DNA from: Leucobacter exalbidus
GTDB taxonomy: Bacteria; Actinomycetota; Actinomycetes; Actinomycetales; Microbacteriaceae
NCBI RefSeq assembly: GCF_017834145.1
Contig: NZ_JAFIDA010000001.1
Span: forward strand, 1,922,001-1,986,000
Direction of reading: 5' to 3'
Length of the DNA stretch: 64,000 nucleotides
The notes under the pieces were generated by a model that was given only the letters and a program-made list of their open reading frames with translations, made no database searches and had not been told where the DNA came from. Below are positions 14,878-64,000 of the stretch, one piece after another; position 1 is the stretch's first letter, and every line of letters begins with the position of its first letter. The position numbers and the translations under genes are program-made.

Positions 14878-17800
14878 ATGCGCCAGACTGAAACCGTGAA
14901 CATCTCGTCGTATGCGCTTGAGATCGTCAAGCAGGTCACTCCCCGCCTCGCGGTCGAGGAGGCGATGAGGTATGTGGCTCGGCAGCAGGTCGAGCTCACC
15001 CGCGTGGTTCGGTCGGGCAAACAGCTCTCCGCGCACGTACTTATCTCGGCGCTCAGCGGCGAGGAATCCGTCGAGATCAGCATCTTCGCCGATAACAGCA
15101 TCGATTACACCTGCTCCTGCCAGGTTCAGCACCTCTGCGCGCACACCGCAGCCGGCCTACTGGTGCTCATTGCCGAGCACGGCACCGCGAGCTCACCTCG
15201 CACCCCGGCATCGACCGCCGAGGCAGTACCCAGCATGCCAGACGTAGACCGCTCACGATCACGGTCACTTGCAGGGCCAGGCTCCGGGCTATCGCGCCTC
15301 CAGCGCACCCAGCCACACCTGCCACCCCCGCCCCCACCACTGCCCGCTTGGCAGCGCGAGCTCGATCGCATTCTGCCGGGGGCACAGCGCGCCGCGCAGA
15401 CCGAACTCTGCCTGTTCCTCACCGTTTTGCCCGCCGACCGGTCAGAGCATCGCCGCTTCGCTGCCCCCGGCCTTTCTCTGCGCCCCGGAGTGCGTGGCAG
15501 CCGCAACAAATGGATTCGAGGGAATGCCCGCTGGAGCAGCCTCGAGCACTTGGGTGCTTCACGTGAAACAACCCGAGCGTTCTTGCGGTTGCGGCGAGCG
15601 CTTGAGCTATCTGGCCTCTATTACTGGAGTGAGCACGACTGGATTGATGTGCTCGAGGTTGCTGGCGCCGATCTGTGGCCCGCGCTGCAAGATCTTCATG
15701 CCGCGGGAATCCCCATCGTCTCGGCGGGGAAGGCGCAGCATCAGGTCGAGTTTGTCCCCGAGATGGCCCAGATTTCGGGGTCCATCGTGCGCAGGGAGCA
15801 CGGTCTCGAGATCACGGCGACGCTGCAGCTTGGTGATGATCAGATCGACGAGCGCACCGATGACACCTTTTGGTGGGTGGGTGCGCCCAGCACCGCGTTT
15901 GCCCTCGTTGCCGACGCTGCGGGGCCCACCGAGCACATCACGCTGGTCGGTCTCGATCGACCTGTCTCTGGGATCGCCGCGAAGCTGCTCGATTCGGCCG
16001 CCCCGCTCATCATTCCCGATGCTGACCTTGAGGCGTTCGAGGACCAGTATCTTCCCCGGTTCTTGGTGGCGCTGCCTTCGATCTCCCCCGACGGCAGTTT
16101 CGAGATGCCTGAGGCACCCCGGTCGCGGCTGCGCCTCACTGCCCGCTATGACGAGTGGCATACGCATCTTTCGTGGGCGTGGCATCACCCCGCGGGCCTC
16201 GCCCGCAATGCTGCCGCGGAGCGCGAGGTGCTGCAGGCCGTCGTGACCGCTGCGGGTGATCTGCTGCCCGAAATTTGGCCCGGGCAGGATCTGAGCGGGC
16301 CACCGCCGGCCTGCAAGTTGGGGCGGGCGCACAGTGTCCACTTCGTCACCGATCTGCTGCCTCAGCTGCGCGATCTTGACGGCGTCGAGATCCTCGAAGA
16401 GGCGGCTCCGCCCGAGTATCGCGCCGCCGAAATCGCACCGTTTGTCACCATTCGTCCCGAGGCCACCGGCGATTGGTTCGATCTGCACGTGACGATCGAT
16501 ATTGCGGGCGAAACGGTCGAGTTTGCTGAGCTCTTCACGGCCCTCGCGCTCAACGAGCCACTGTTTGTGTTGCCCAGCGGCACTTATTTCTCCCTGATGG
16601 CACCCGAGTTCGACAAGTTGCGAGAGATCCTCGACGAGGCCCGCGCGCTCACCGATGGCAGCACCGCGGCCTTCGCCCATGGGGTGCGCGTCAACCGCCA
16701 CAATGTCGATCTGTGGGCCGAGCTGAGCGAACTCGGCATTGTGGCCGCGCAAGAGGCCGACTGGTGGCGGGCAATGAAGTCGCTCGCGCCCGGCACCGCG
16801 ATCGCCCCCGTCGCCACTCCCCACGGAATCCACGCGACCCTGCGCGACTACCAAGAGCAGGGCCTCGCCTGGCTCCATTTTCTGCGCACCCACGGCCTCG
16901 GCGGCATCCTCGCCGACGATATGGGGCTGGGCAAGACGCTGCAGACCATTGCGATGATGGAAATTGCGCGCGAAGAGGATCCGGATCGCGCCCCGTTTCT
17001 CGTCGTTGCCCCCACGAGCGTCGTCAGTAATTGGGCGAGCGAGTGCGAGAAATTTGCGCCCGAGCTGCGCGTGGCCGTGATTGCGGGGATGGAAAGCAAG
17101 CGCGGGAAGCCGCTAGCCGAGGCCGTGGGTGACGCCCACGTCGTGCTCACGAGCTATGCCCTGTTTCGCGGTGAGGCTGAGGCTTATCGCGAGCTCGAAT
17201 GGTCGGGGCTCATCCTTGATGAGGCCCAGCAGATTAAGAACCATGCCTCACATGGGCACCGCGCAGCCCGCACTCTGGGCGCTCCGTTCACGCTCGTGGT
17301 GACTGGAACTCCGCTCGAGAATAACCTGCTTGAACTGTGGTCGCTGGCGTCACTCGCGGCGCCTGGGCTGCTCGGTAATCGCACGAAGTTCACCGAGTTT
17401 TATCGCAACCCCATTGAGAAAGACCGCGATGCGGGCCGGCTTGCGCTGCTGCAGCGTCGCCTCGCCCCGTTCCTGCTGCGCAGAACTAAAGATCTGGTCG
17501 CCGCTGATCTACCGCCCAAGCAGGAGCAGGTGCTTGAGATCGAGCTGCACCCCAAGCATCGCAAGCAGTATGACCTGCGGTTTCAGCGCGAGCGGCAGAA
17601 AATTTTGGGGCTCGTGGGCGATATGGAGTCGAATCGGTTTCAGATCTTCTCGGCGCTCACCACGCTGCGGCAGCTCGCTCTCGACCCCGAGCTCGTCGGT
17701 GCGGGCAGTGCCCCGTCGGCGAAGCTTGATGCCCTCGTTGATCTGCTCACCGAGGCCGCCGACGAGGGGCACCGTGTGCTCGTGCTGAGCCAGTTCACGC

Positions 17801-51453: not shown

Positions 51454-51472
51454 TCCCTGTGGATTGATCCGG

Positions 51473-51513
51473 ATCCCCTTCGCTCAGCTGCGTGCTGAGC
51501 GAAGGGGATTTTT
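51473..51513 (+). terminator. Strong rho-independent terminator of trxB-trxA
   Basis: ATCCCCTTCGCTCAGC (51473-51488) pairs perfectly (16 bp) with 51494-51509 around TGCGT and is followed by TTTTTG. The palindrome GATCCGGATC overlaps the left arm. Confidence 0.93.
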
Positions 51514-51560: not shown

Positions 51561-52925
51561 TTATCGGGCGTAGTGCCAGTCAGCAAGGTGCCGAAGCTCT
51601 TTGGCGGCGCCCCAGCTGCCGCCTTCTGGGTAGGCCGCCTGCGATGTTGGCGCAGGGTGTGCCTGCGCGATCCGGCGCATCCAAGGTCTCTTTTCGATGG
51701 AGTGGACCCATGTCGCACTGCGGCCGGTGCGGCGCGGCTGCACCGCCGTGACGATGTCCTTTGCGGTGGGCATCTCGGGGAACGTTCCGGCCAGAAACTC
51801 TGCGTAGGCGTAAGGCCGACCACTTTCTTGGACTTCGTGGAGGTAGACGGTCACCCATTTTCCCGGCTGGATACGGATGGCCCACACGTCGCCCGCTGCG
51901 GCCGGGCCGCTGCCTGTGGACGCTGCGGGCTTGTCGGCTTTGGGAACGAGTCTGCGCATGCGTGCGCTGAGCCCGCCACTGAGCAGGTCTTTGAGGGCAG
52001 GGTGCGGAGCGGGTCGAGGAGCATCAAGGTGGACGGGTGGAATATTGAGTGGGCCGAAAATAGCATCTACTACTTCAGTGCGAATACCTGCGTCACCAGC
52101 TGTCGTGTCCCACCATGCCAACGGTGCTTGCACTTCGACTTTGATATTGGGGCGCTGATCGCGCTCCCGATAGGTGGTAAATTTCTCCCACATGCCGGGG
52201 CGGTCTGTGGGCGCCAGCACTCCGATGAGGGCGAGGTCTTCGAGCACCGCGTTGACCGCGCGTTTGTCGGGGAGAATTTTGGCCGCGGTGATCGCTTTGG
52301 CAGCCGCGGTGTAGCGAGATCCGGCTGGCAAAGAACGAATCACGGATATGATCGCGCCCAGCGCCCAGCGGTCATATTCAGTTGGCTCGGGTCGTTCTGC
52401 CGCCAGCCAGGCGAGCGCCTGAGCGTAGCCGGAAGGTTCACCGTCGAGCGGCGTACCCTCGGTGAGATAGGACGACCAGGCCGCTACCAGCTGCTGGGGT
52501 CGGTCACGATACCCGCACACTTGGCACAGATCTGTAACGGAGTTGCTCCACGGGGTAAACGGGTGTTCTGGAAGCTGCCGTTCGATCAGTACGCCCAGCA
52601 GTACCGCGCGCCACGCAGCCGGAGCGGACCATAGGCCAGCGACAAAAGCAGCGGCCGCATCGGGGACCGCCCAGTCTGCCGCTGCGACTCGGAGCTGCTG
52701 AATCGAGTCGCCGTGTGTGGGCCATTCGACTACATGCGGGTCGATCCCAGCTGCGGTGAGCGCTTCGATCAGTGGCGCATACTGCGGCAGTACCGGTGGA
52801 CGATGCCACGAACCACCGATCTGCGCGTCCCAAGTGAGCGGCGATGCTTTCTCCAGGAGGCGCCAGCGTGCAACGTGGTCACCTAACGCACAGTCATGGG
52901 TCTCAGGTATCAAGAATCCGCTCAT
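51561..52925 (-). CDS. Unrecognised 454-residue protein between trxA and parB
   Basis: No family is recognised. Visible features are a CQVCGY-type CxxC near residue 136, a WLAAERPEPTEYDRWALGAI segment, and a C-terminal part (GDVWAIRIQPGKWVTVYLH) that faintly recalls immunity/Imm26-like beta domains; this last point is a guess. The start MSGFLIPETHD at ATG 52925 has AGGAAGG upstream; an in-frame ATG at 52964 is less supported. It is convergent with trxA, and codes on the parB strand but with 214 bp between. In related genomes this gap between trxA and parB normally is not filled by such a gene, so it may be an accessory insertion. Confidence 0.7.
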   Translation of the reverse strand: MSGFLIPETHDCALGDHVARWRLLEKASPLTWDAQIGGSWHRPPVLPQYAPLIEALTAAGIDPHVVEWPTHGDSIQQLRVAAADWAVPDAAAAFVAGLWSAPAAWRAVLLGVLIERQLPEHPFTPWSNSVTDLCQVCGYRDRPQQLVAAWSSYLTEGTPLDGEPSGYAQALAWLAAERPEPTEYDRWALGAIISVIRSLPAGSRYTAAAKAITAAKILPDKRAVNAVLEDLALIGVLAPTDRPGMWEKFTTYRERDQRPNIKVEVQAPLAWWDTTAGDAGIRTEVVDAIFGPLNIPPVHLDAPRPAPHPALKDLLSGGLSARMRRLVPKADKPAASTGSGPAAAGDVWAIRIQPGKWVTVYLHEVQESGRPYAYAEFLAGTFPEMPTAKDIVTAVQPRRTGRSATWVHSIEKRPWMRRIAQAHPAPTSQAAYPEGGSWGAAKELRHLADWHYAR

Positions 52926-53072
52926 TACTGCGCCTTCCTGCTGAGATAAGCGTTGGCTTGTCATTCATGATTGAAGTCAATCACAACGGTGAGCACCGCG
53001 TGAGGGGAGCAGGGCGTGGATCTTGTGCCTCGTTCCTTGCGCAGAACCGCAATTTGGCACGAACACGCAAAA

Positions 53073-53114
53073 TGGCCCTGCTGCACCGACAATGAAGTCG
53101 GCGAAGCAGGGCCA
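53073..53114 (-). terminator. Nested hairpin terminator after parB
   Basis: TGGCCCTGCT (53073-53082) pairs with AGCAGGGCCA (53105-53114), with an inner CCGAC/GTCGG stem. T-rich stretches flank both sides, and it lies 25 bp after the parB stop. The rest of the 214-bp gap shows no gene. Confidence 0.85.
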
Positions 53115-53139
53115 GTTTTAGCAGTGCTAAAGGTTTTCG

Positions 53140-55038: not shown

Positions 55039-55693
55039 GTCTCACGATTTTAGCTCGAAATACTCGGGTGGTCTCTACGTCTAGGCCCGCGCCAAGCTCT
55101 TCCACGGCGATTTCACGCACGCGGTGCTTGCGCAGCGCCTTCTCGGCCGCCTCGATCTCAGTCTGAATCGAGGCGCCCTTCAAGAAGAGCATCTCGCCGC
55201 CGTCGCGCAGCAGCGGCGCGGTCAGGGGGACGAGCTTCTTCAGCGCGGTGACCGCGCGTGCGGTCACCTGGTCGACCTCGAAGGCGTCGTGGAACTCTTC
55301 GACGCGACCGCGGCGCACCTCGGCGTTGGTAAGACCCAAGCGCTCGATCTGCTCGGTCAGCCAAGCGCAGCGGCGCTCCATCGGCTCGATGAAGAGGAAA
55401 TGTGCATCGGGGCGCACAATCGCCAGGATCAGCCCGGGCATACCGCCGCCGGTGCCGATGTCGGCAACCGTCGCGCCTGACTGCACCAGGGGAGCGAGCA
55501 GCGCGCTATTAACAATGTGCCGGCTCCACAGTCGTGGGGCCTCGAGCGGACCAATCAGGCCCAGCTCTTCTCCGCGCTCACCCAGATCCTGGGTGAAGGC
55601 GCGCAGTACATCGATCCGGTCGCCAGCGAGCACAGCAGCCGCTGCGGGCTCTGGCTCAATGGCGGCCGGATCGGTTTCACGTGAAACGGTCAC
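55031..55693 (-). CDS. rsmG: 16S rRNA (guanine527-N7)-methyltransferase
   Basis: 220 residues. The SAM-binding motif is VADIGTGGGMPGLILAI, and VRRGRVEEF lies in motif order. It methylates G527 of 16S rRNA. The start is GTG 55693-55691; codons 3-7 form a parS site. Upstream is jag (11 bp), downstream parA overlaps by 8 bp. Confidence 0.95.
   Translation of the reverse strand: MTVSRETDPAAIEPEPAAAAVLAGDRIDVLRAFTQDLGERGEELGLIGPLEAPRLWSRHIVNSALLAPLVQSGATVADIGTGGGMPGLILAIVRPDAHFLFIEPMERRCAWLTEQIERLGLTNAEVRRGRVEEFHDAFEVDQVTARAVTALKKLVPLTAPLLRDGGEMLFLKGASIQTEIEAAEKALRKHRVREIAVEELGAGLDVETTRVFRAKIVRHG
55674..55687. promoter_or_regulatory. parS: parS site in the rsmG start
   Basis: GTTTCACGTGAAAC is a perfect copy of the core parS palindrome, bound by ParB. 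It lies in rsmG codons 3-7 (VSRET), about 4 kb from oriC, as in many bacteria. Confidence 0.92.
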
Positions 55694-61401: not shown

Positions 61402-62559
61402 ATGCGCGTCGCGCATCTTTCGCTTCGAGATTTTCGAAACTACGTCACCGCGGAGCTTCCCCTCGAAGCGGGAGCAAACCTCTTAGTCGGTCGCAACGGC
61501 CAGGGTAAAACAAACCTGGCCGAAGCGATCGGCTATTTTTCAAGCCTTCGCTCTCACCGCGTATCCAATGACGGGCCGCTCGTGAGATTTGGAGAGCAGG
61601 CCGCATTTTTGCGGCTGCGCGTCGAAGCCAATCAGCGCACGGTGTTGCTTGACCTGCAGATTAATCGCGACGGCGCCAATCGCGCGCAGGTGAATGGCAA
61701 CTCGGTGCCACCACGCGAGCTCATGCGATGGTTCGCAGCGGTAGCTTTTGTGCCAGAAGACCTCAGTATCGTTCGTGGAGAGCCCTCCGTTCGTCGGCGG
61801 TTCCTCGACGACGCACTCACTTCTCGCCATCCGGCGGCTGCGGGCGTGCTGCAGGACTACGATCGAGTGCTGCGACAGCGCACCGCGCTACTGAAATCTG
61901 CACGCGGCCGCTTGGCGCAGATTGAATCCACGCTGAGCGTTTGGGACGAGCAGCTCGTGTCGCTCGGCACTCAGATCATGTTGGCGCGACGAGAGTATGT
62001 CGCGGATTCGGCACCGCACCTCGTCGAATCGTATGCCGCTCTCGTGGGGGAGGACCACCACCCTCGCTGCGGCATGGTCGAGTCTGCGCTGGGCAATGTT
62101 TCACGTGGAACACTGCCCGTGGCCGATTCCGTTGATGTTTCACGTGAAACTCTCGAGTCGAAGTTTCGCGAAACCCTCGCACTTGTGCGCGGCAAAGAGG
62201 TCGATCGCGGTATGACGCTCGCCGGCCCGCACCGCGATGATCTCGAGATGTCTCTCAACGGGCTCCCCGTGAAGGGGTTTGCGAGCCATGGAGAATCATG
62301 GTCATTTGCGCTGGGGTTGAAGCTCGCGCTCGCTCAAGTACTGAAGGAGCAGTCATCGGCGGGCGATCCGGTGATGATTCTTGATGACGTATTTGCTGAG
62401 CTTGATAGCGAACGGCGGTCGAGACTCATGCGCTCAGTGAGCGCTTTTGAGCAGGTAATTGTCACCGCGGCCGTCGAAAGCGACGTGCCCAGCGACGTGG
62501 AATGGCACAAGGTACACGTCAGCGCCGGCACACTCTCGACTGAGGATCTCAGCCTATGA
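61402..62559 (+). CDS. recF: DNA replication/repair protein RecF
   Basis: 385 residues of the SMC-like ATPase type: Walker A GRNGQGKTNLAEAI, then the LRSHR sensor, the signature and Walker B MILDDVFAELDSERR. It loads RecA at gaps. Two parS-like sites lie within it at 62097-62112 and 62136-62151. It overlaps the DciA gene start by 4 bp (ATGA). Confidence 0.96.
   Translation: MRVAHLSLRDFRNYVTAELPLEAGANLLVGRNGQGKTNLAEAIGYFSSLRSHRVSNDGPLVRFGEQAAFLRLRVEANQRTVLLDLQINRDGANRAQVNGNSVPPRELMRWFAAVAFVPEDLSIVRGEPSVRRRFLDDALTSRHPAAAGVLQDYDRVLRQRTALLKSARGRLAQIESTLSVWDEQLVSLGTQIMLARREYVADSAPHLVESYAALVGEDHHPRCGMVESALGNVSRGTLPVADSVDVSRETLESKFRETLALVRGKEVDRGMTLAGPHRDDLEMSLNGLPVKGFASHGESWSFALGLKLALAQVLKEQSSAGDPVMILDDVFAELDSERRSRLMRSVSAFEQVIVTAAVESDVPSDVEWHKVHVSAGTLSTEDLSL
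62097..62151. promoter_or_regulatory. parS: Two parS sites inside recF
   Basis: TGTTTCACGTGAAACT (62136-62151) holds the perfect 14-bp core. TGTTTCACGTGGAACA (62097-62112) has one mismatch in the right arm. Centres are 39 bp apart. These sit about 2 kb from oriC. Confidence 0.9.
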
Positions 62560-63234: not shown

Positions 63235-64000
63235 ATGAACTCAGAACAGGCCGCTGCCGCGGAAAGTTATGGCGCTGGAGCGATCCAGGTGCTGGAAGGC
63301 CTCGAGGCGGTTCGCAAGCGTCCGGGTATGTACATTGGATCAACCGGTCCTCGTGGTTTGCACCACCTCGTGTACGAGATCGTTGATAACTCAGTGGACG
63401 AGGCGCTTGCCGGCCACTGCGACAAGATCTTGGTGACGATCCTTGAAGATGGTGGCGTTCGCGTCATCGATAACGGGCGTGGTATTCCCGTCGATATGCA
63501 CCCAACGGAGGGGCGTTCGACGGTTGAAGTTGTTTTGACGGTGCTGCACGCTGGTGGCAAGTTCGGTGGCGGCGGTTATGCCGTTTCGGGCGGCCTGCAC
63601 GGTGTGGGCTCCTCGGTCGTGAACGCGCTCTCGAGCAAGTTCACAGTCGCCGTGAAGCGTCAAGGTTTCACGTGGAACATGTCATTTACCGATAGCGTTC
63701 CCGATGCCCCGCTTGCGAAGGGGGAGGCCAGTGAAGACACTGGCACCACGATTAACTTCTGGCCCAGCGCCGAAATTTTCGAAACTGTAGAGTTCGATTA
63801 CGAGACGCTGCGTACGCGATTCCAGCAGATGGCCTTCTTGAACAAGGGCCTCACGATTGAGCTCACTGACCTGCGCCCGCGCGAGGCCGTTGAGAACGAA
63901 GCTGGCGAGCTGGTTCAGCCCGAGCCTCAGCACCACTCGTTCTGCTACGAAAAGGGCATCGAGGACTACGTACGCCACATCAACTCAGCCAAGCGCGCTG
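63235..64000 (+). CDS. gyrB: DNA gyrase subunit B, N-terminal part (runs off the right edge)
   Basis: The first 255 residues. The GHKL ATPase motifs are visible: [27 protein letters not shown], and the lid [22 protein letters not shown]. It supplies the energy for negative supercoiling by gyrase. ATG 63235 has AAAGGA upstream. A parS-like site lies at 63664. Confidence 0.96.
63664..63679. promoter_or_regulatory. parS: parS-like site inside gyrB
   Basis: GGTTTCACGTGGAACA matches the parS consensus apart from the first base and one right-arm base. It has the same GTGGAAC variant as the recF site. About 3.6 kb from oriC. Confidence 0.7.

What the first reader, a model, noticed from the sequence alone, without database searches (positions are those of the whole stretch)
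51561..52925. Orphan gene in the conserved trxA-parB interval
A 454-residue protein with no family I recognise lies between two otherwise conserved origin genes. It has its own ribosome site and neighbours with strong terminators on both sides, so it seems an independent unit. A CxxC pair and a beta-rich C-terminal part are the only hints.
Basis: partly seen in the sequence, partly recalled or inferred. Interest (0 to 1): 0.5.

Follow-up and report, generated by a model that had tools for sequence, protein, structure and literature searches.

The report
Horizontally acquired, unnamed two-domain protein
The gene is real but is not an orphan: full-length relatives sit in a fixed chromosomal place in one group of Bacilli, this Leucobacter-type genome most likely gained its copy by gene transfer, and what the protein does is still unknown.

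Summary
The ORF at 51561-52925 (minus, 454 aa) is real: good ribosome site, strong hairpins on both sides, conserved CxxC. Pfam, NCBIfam, PHROGs, PADLOC and PDB sequence searches find nothing. But it is no orphan. Full-length homologues (39-42% identity, E down to 3e-96) occur in 13 of 148 genomes of one Bacilli family; in the 9 loci fetched the gene sits between ribD and ppiB/lysA. Shorter relatives, with only the N-terminal ~270-residue module, occur in Bacilli (34 of 299 genomes have a family match), two congeners, and Streptomyces and Niallia plasmids. The full-length form was found only in the window's own genome among 54 of its genus, 398 of its family and 396 of its phylum. The trxA-parB interval is not conserved: in 48 measurable congeners it spans 83-5533 bp, and 34 of them hold an SRPBCC-like sequence there. 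Horizontal gain is likely, donor unsampled. Function is open: perhaps a winged helix in the middle and a small beta barrel at the end. Some neighbours of short members are immunity-type, but the control test was not significant. An ordinary accessory gene from an unnamed family.

The parts
51561..52925 (-). CDS, 454 aa, full-length member of an unnamed two-domain family
   Evidence: 39-42% identity to Bacilli proteins, E to 3e-96
52026..52805 (-). N-terminal module (about residues 41-300) shared with the short relatives
   Evidence: hhalign 99.3% probability, E 1e-20 between the long and short alignments
52515..52526 (-). CxxC (C134-C137), with H121 conserved upstream; putative metal site
   Evidence: invariant columns; C137 also invariant in the small mixed alignments
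52038..52388 (-). residues about 180-296, possible winged-helix region
   Evidence: pLDDT 74-87 for residues 181-230 only; weak Z 3.5-4.5 matches to winged-helix proteins
51564..51908 (-). C-terminal beta-rich domain (residues 340-454), seen only in the full-length form
   Evidence: no significant match of its own in PDB sequences or plasmids
52933..52939 (-). ribosome-binding site AGGAAGG, 7 nt before the ATG
   Evidence: sequence
51471..51511 (+). trxA intrinsic terminator hairpin
53069..53118 (-). hairpin after parB, terminator-like on the minus strand

Best explanation
The gene is a full-length member of an undescribed two-domain protein family: a helical N-terminal module with a CxxC site and a possible winged helix, plus a C-terminal small beta barrel. 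Its closest known relatives are a syntenic chromosomal gene of one clade of Bacilli. The window's lineage most likely gained it horizontally at a gene-turnover site between trxA and parB, where most congeners carry an SRPBCC-like gene. Shown: homology, architecture, distribution, interval variability. Inferred: transfer rather than repeated loss (about 0.85), and the folds (about 0.5). Mechanism, inferred only: a stand-alone cytoplasmic protein that binds a macromolecular target through the module and the barrel; my best guess is an immunity- or protection-type binder of an incoming toxin or effector (about 0.25). The score below is for the statement as a whole.
For: Full-length homologues at 39-42% identity, E from 8e-85 to 3e-96, in 13 of 148 genomes. 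Same ribD-ppiB/lysA slot in 9 of 9 fetched full-length loci, L106-L114. dN/dS about 0.05-0.18 in 5 pairs, dS above 1.7 in two of them, so the gene is a protein under constraint. The window protein groups with the Bacilli long forms at 100/99 support, while the two other congeners' proteins fall elsewhere, G020's with Streptomyces at 100/99 and G017's with only 85/81. Full-length form only in the own genome among 54 of the genus, 398 of the family and 396 of the phylum. SRPBCC-like sequence in the interval of 34 of 48 congeners, none found in the own genome. GC3 0.66, below nine neighbouring genes at 0.69-0.84. For the mechanism: near some short members lie SUKH, DUF2716, DUF4240 with a sub-threshold Imm26 start, DUF4272, DUF1963, DUF4259 and DUF4274 genes.
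Against: The full-length form itself sits beside housekeeping genes, with no toxin seen near it in the loci read (window 47-57 kb, L106, L114). Of 20 immediate neighbours tested from 11 context types, only 2 (DUF4259 and DUF4274, both in one context) are of that type, against 0 of 10 control proteins: not significant. Base composition is only mildly odd: among 38 unfiltered ORFs of the window the gene is within the lowest six for GC3; my first comparison, lowest of 27, used a filter that favoured high GC3. Structure models are poor (mean pLDDT 48 and 40). The empty SRPBCC search of the own genome used one congener's protein at E <= 0.001 and had no positive control in that call; the same query does find the gene in 34 congeners' intervals. 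Only one actinobacterial full-length copy is known, so repeated loss is not excluded.
Confidence: 0.5

Rival explanations
1. A nucleic-acid-binding regulator: the winged helix binds DNA or RNA and the Tudor/SH3-like barrel contacts a partner.
For: Residues 181-230 are the best-modelled part (pLDDT 74-87), and many of the weak structural rows over residues 180-296 are winged-helix proteins (SlyA, IclR type, KAT6A WH, BusR, RovA; Z 3.6-4.5; that these are winged-helix proteins is recalled or from their titles). Weak Foldseek rows include Tudor domains (E 2.4 and worse).
Against: The Z values lie below the level that means anything for such models (note). Winged helices are also common in proteins that do not bind DNA. 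No HTH or Tudor family of Pfam matches.
Confidence: 0.25
2. Vertical inheritance from an old common ancestor with loss in nearly all Actinomycetota.
For: The end branch is long (0.98), so a transfer, if any, is not recent or the donor is unsampled; composition is only mildly unusual.
Against: Only the own genome carries the full-length form in 396 phylum and 398 family genomes; three genomes of one genus hold three different members of the family.
Confidence: 0.12
3. A spurious or decaying frame.
For: No curated family matches.
Against: Full-length homology over 448 residues without a stop; low dN/dS among the Bacilli relatives.
Confidence: 0.01

Closest known systems
Unnamed 437-444 aa proteins of a Bacilli family, ribD-ppiB interval (L106-L114)
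   Same: both domains, full length, 39-42% identity
   Different: different phylum and genomic slot; the Bacilli copies are syntenic with one another
Short module-only proteins (WP_237944392.1 of Niallia, WP_327311784.1 of Streptomyces, Leucobacter sp. Ag1 L073)
   Same: N-terminal module; CxxC in the Niallia and Leucobacter proteins, one C in the Streptomyces one
   Different: no C-terminal barrel; 23-30% identity to the window protein; the Niallia and Streptomyces ones lie on plasmids
Imm26 (PF15428)
   Same: only the short GDVxA start of the C-terminal domain looks alike (hhalign probability 5.8% to a weak Imm26 match)
   Different: no Pfam match to Imm26 for any of the 10 members at E <= 10

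Membership tests
Unnamed two-domain family (long form, Bacilli) | full-length homology over both domains | tested here: met
Unnamed two-domain family (long form, Bacilli) | invariant H121 and CxxC | tested here: met
Unnamed two-domain family (long form, Bacilli) | position between ribD and ppiB | tested here: not met
   window gene lies between trxA and parB; Bacilli loci. A position, not a requirement of homology
Imm26 (PF15428) | profile match above the gathering score | tested here: not met
   no match at E <= 10; hhalign to a protein that is itself only a sub-threshold Imm26 match (15.3 bits, cut-off 23.3) gave 5.8%
SUKH / SMI1-KNR4 | profile match above the gathering score | tested here: not met
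Immunity protein of a polymorphic toxin system | gene next to a cognate toxin | tested here: not met
   ORF lists of the window (47-57 kb) and of L106 and L114, read by eye and recall; no toxin seen
Immunity protein of a polymorphic toxin system | neutralises a toxin | not testable with these tools
   needs an assay
Winged-helix proteins | winged-helix fold of residues about 180-296 | tested here: inconclusive
   weak Z 3.5-4.5 on a low-confidence model
Zinc-ribbon or zinc-finger proteins | four metal ligands | tested here: inconclusive
   one CxxC plus a conserved His seen; fourth ligand not identified; no metal test

The most novel reading that the evidence does not exclude
An undescribed, widely scattered family of stand-alone protective proteins, in which a zinc-stabilised winged-helix module (alone, or fused to a Tudor/SH3-like barrel) recognises incoming effectors. 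It moves between phyla and settles at chromosomal turnover sites such as trxA-parB.
Probability: 0.15. Interest if true: 0.5.

Novelty: new member of a known kind. Interest (0 to 1): 0.25.

Why it matters
It turns an apparent orphan into a family with dozens of traceable members in two phyla, two architectures and conserved residues that can be tested. It also shows that the trxA-parB interval beside the origin is a site of gene turnover in this genus rather than a conserved block. The functional consequence is modest until someone assays the protein.

Tried and rejected
Match in G247 (E 5.7e-5; L004): its frame lies inside an ORF that reads as an aminotransferase in another frame (naming by recall), so chance. 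Scans of genome contigs with the window protein (nothing) and with A4 (Niallia taxi, Neobacillus mesonae, Leucobacter sp. Ag1); scans of viral contigs with A2, the window protein, A4, A5 and one motif pattern: nothing. Phage records: no match for the window protein, P0003 or the Bacilli protein. A Bacilli order sample with the Niallia protein: 1 of 249, the centre genome itself. PF15428 in the own genome: empty, but its 14 controls were empty too, so it shows nothing. Foldseek: no match with E <= 0.001; VIA-align best Z 5.2, to a receptor, meaningless for such a model. Codon-usage outlier claim: first made with a biased filter, then weakened without it. Immunity-type neighbours: 2 of 20 against 0 of 10, not significant. 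The 20 came from one chosen locus for each of 11 context types and leave out two immediate neighbours (one without a match, one untested); the 10 controls were chosen from 108 listed; the proteins were hand-picked. Papers: four searches; I saw listings and starts of abstracts only and opened no paper; none of the titles or abstract starts shown speaks of this gene; two searches listed nothing.

Full report
Observation. The minus-strand ORF at 51561-52925 encodes 454 residues. AGGAAGG stands 7 nt before its ATG. The trxA hairpin has its T-rich tail on the + strand only, so it is trxA's terminator and not clearly this gene's own. The upstream ATG at 52964 would give 467 aa, but the Bacilli homologues align from about residue 16 on.

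No named family. For the window protein, Pfam, NCBIfam, PHROGs, PADLOC and PDB sequences gave nothing at E <= 10. Cut into two parts it gave only an insignificant Type_ISP_C match in Pfam (E 0.071) and nothing in NCBIfam. All 10 rows of the full-length alignment scanned singly gave only matches with E >= 0.19.

The relatives. In 60 relatives the protein matched weakly in two congeners, G017 (33% identity, E 1e-9) and G020 (34%, E 4e-7), both away from the trxA-parB interval. From the window protein and these, Streptomyces and Niallia plasmid proteins were found. A two-row profile then matched 34 of 299 genomes of class Bacilli (the class). Eleven of these also hold a second match in an open frame of 438-462 aa. 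The nine of those that I fetched (L106-L114) align over the whole window protein, including the C-terminal domain (BLASTP with L106: 40% over 448 columns). Searched directly, the window protein matches 15 of 148 genomes of that Bacilli family: thirteen over nearly the whole length with E from 8e-85 to 3e-96 (one of them with a stop inside), and two weak and partial. In the nine fetched loci the gene lies between ribD of a riboflavin operon and ppiB/lysA. Its product is 73-95% identical to that of L106, while nine neighbouring proteins are 86-100% (gene names by recall). dN/dS is well below 1 in the five pairs computed; dS is above 1.7 in two.

Distribution. The full-length form is in the own genome only among all 54 genomes held of the genus (the two other matches are the partial ones of G017 and G020), 398 of the family (one further match, in G247, is chance) and 396 of the phylum; an earlier phylum sample of 296 with a looser profile also gave only the own genome. 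The window's genus is Leucobacter in the GTDB sense by inference: G017 is 'same genus', and its contig equals one of Leucobacter sp. Ag1 in length and place of the match. The tree groups the window protein with the Bacilli long forms at 100/99; G020's protein groups with Streptomyces at 100/99; G017's stands alone at a weaker fork (85/81). Long branches and uneven composition were flagged. I read this as horizontal gain, from a lineage not sampled here.

The interval. trxA was sought in 54 genomes and found in each, though in G006 only at the level of a paralogue. Of 53 other genomes, 48 gave a trxA-parB distance: 8 have 83-270 bp and no ORF of 90 codons or more, 33 carry a homologous minus-strand ORF of about 150-190 codons, and 7 have something else; by tblastn one of those 7 (G021) also holds a piece like that ORF, so 34 of 48 in all. 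By eye and recall this gene is SRPBCC-like, and others look like PPK2, MFS transporters, a flavin monooxygenase, a BASS-type transporter and an epimerase; these names were not tested against Pfam. None of the congeners' interval loci matches the window's protein. The own genome has no match to one SRPBCC-like protein at E <= 0.001 (no positive control in that call). So this is a turnover site, not a conserved block.

Composition. GC3 is 0.66, against 0.69-0.84 for nine neighbouring genes. Among 38 unfiltered ORFs of 200 or more codons it is within the lowest six. An earlier figure, lowest of 27, is biased by my filter. Composition therefore supports foreign origin only mildly.

Structure. A model from four sequences has mean pLDDT 48. 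Residues 181-230 reach 74-87, and three strands lie within 347-378. The C-terminal part alone was poor (40). Foldseek found nothing significant. VIA-align gave many weak winged-helix rows over residues 180-296, below the level that means anything alone.

Mechanism. The Niallia short member is flanked by DUF2716 and SUKH genes. One Bacilli context has DUF4272 next to the short member, one has DUF1963 two ORFs away, one has DUF4259 and DUF4274 on either side, and Neobacillus has a DUF4240 protein with a sub-threshold Imm26 start about 5 kb away. I recall such families as immunity-type. But of 20 immediate neighbours from 11 context types only 2 are of that kind, against 0 of 10 control proteins. 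Other contexts are SelO with an AAA/HD protein (6 of 20 loci by clustering), DUF2357/PDDEXK_7, dehydroquinate synthase and others. The full-length form stands next to housekeeping genes. Protection or immunity remains my first guess at about 0.25, with a nucleic-acid-binding role close behind.

Verdict. A real, constrained, unnamed accessory gene, probably horizontally gained; not an orphan and not in a conserved interval.

Noticed in passing
window 62097-62151, 63664-63679, 55673-55688, 15555-15570: Near-perfect parS-like sites (consensus typed from recall): 13 strand-wise matches with up to 3 mismatches against 1.0 expected; three lie near the right end of the window and one at the 5' end of the rsmG-like gene.
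   Followed up: no
trxA-parB interval of 48 congeners (L011-L068): Gene turnover site: no ORF in 8, SRPBCC-like gene in 33 (34 by tblastn), other contents in the rest, length 83 to 5533 bp.
   Followed up: partly
L070:6001-6822 and L005 (Streptomyces plasmids): The annotated start of the short relatives looks too late: homology to the congener protein begins about 140 bp upstream of it in both records.
   Followed up: no
L129 (G1333): One Bacilli full-length homologue has an internal TAG stop, so this copy may be decaying or hold a sequencing error.
   Followed up: no
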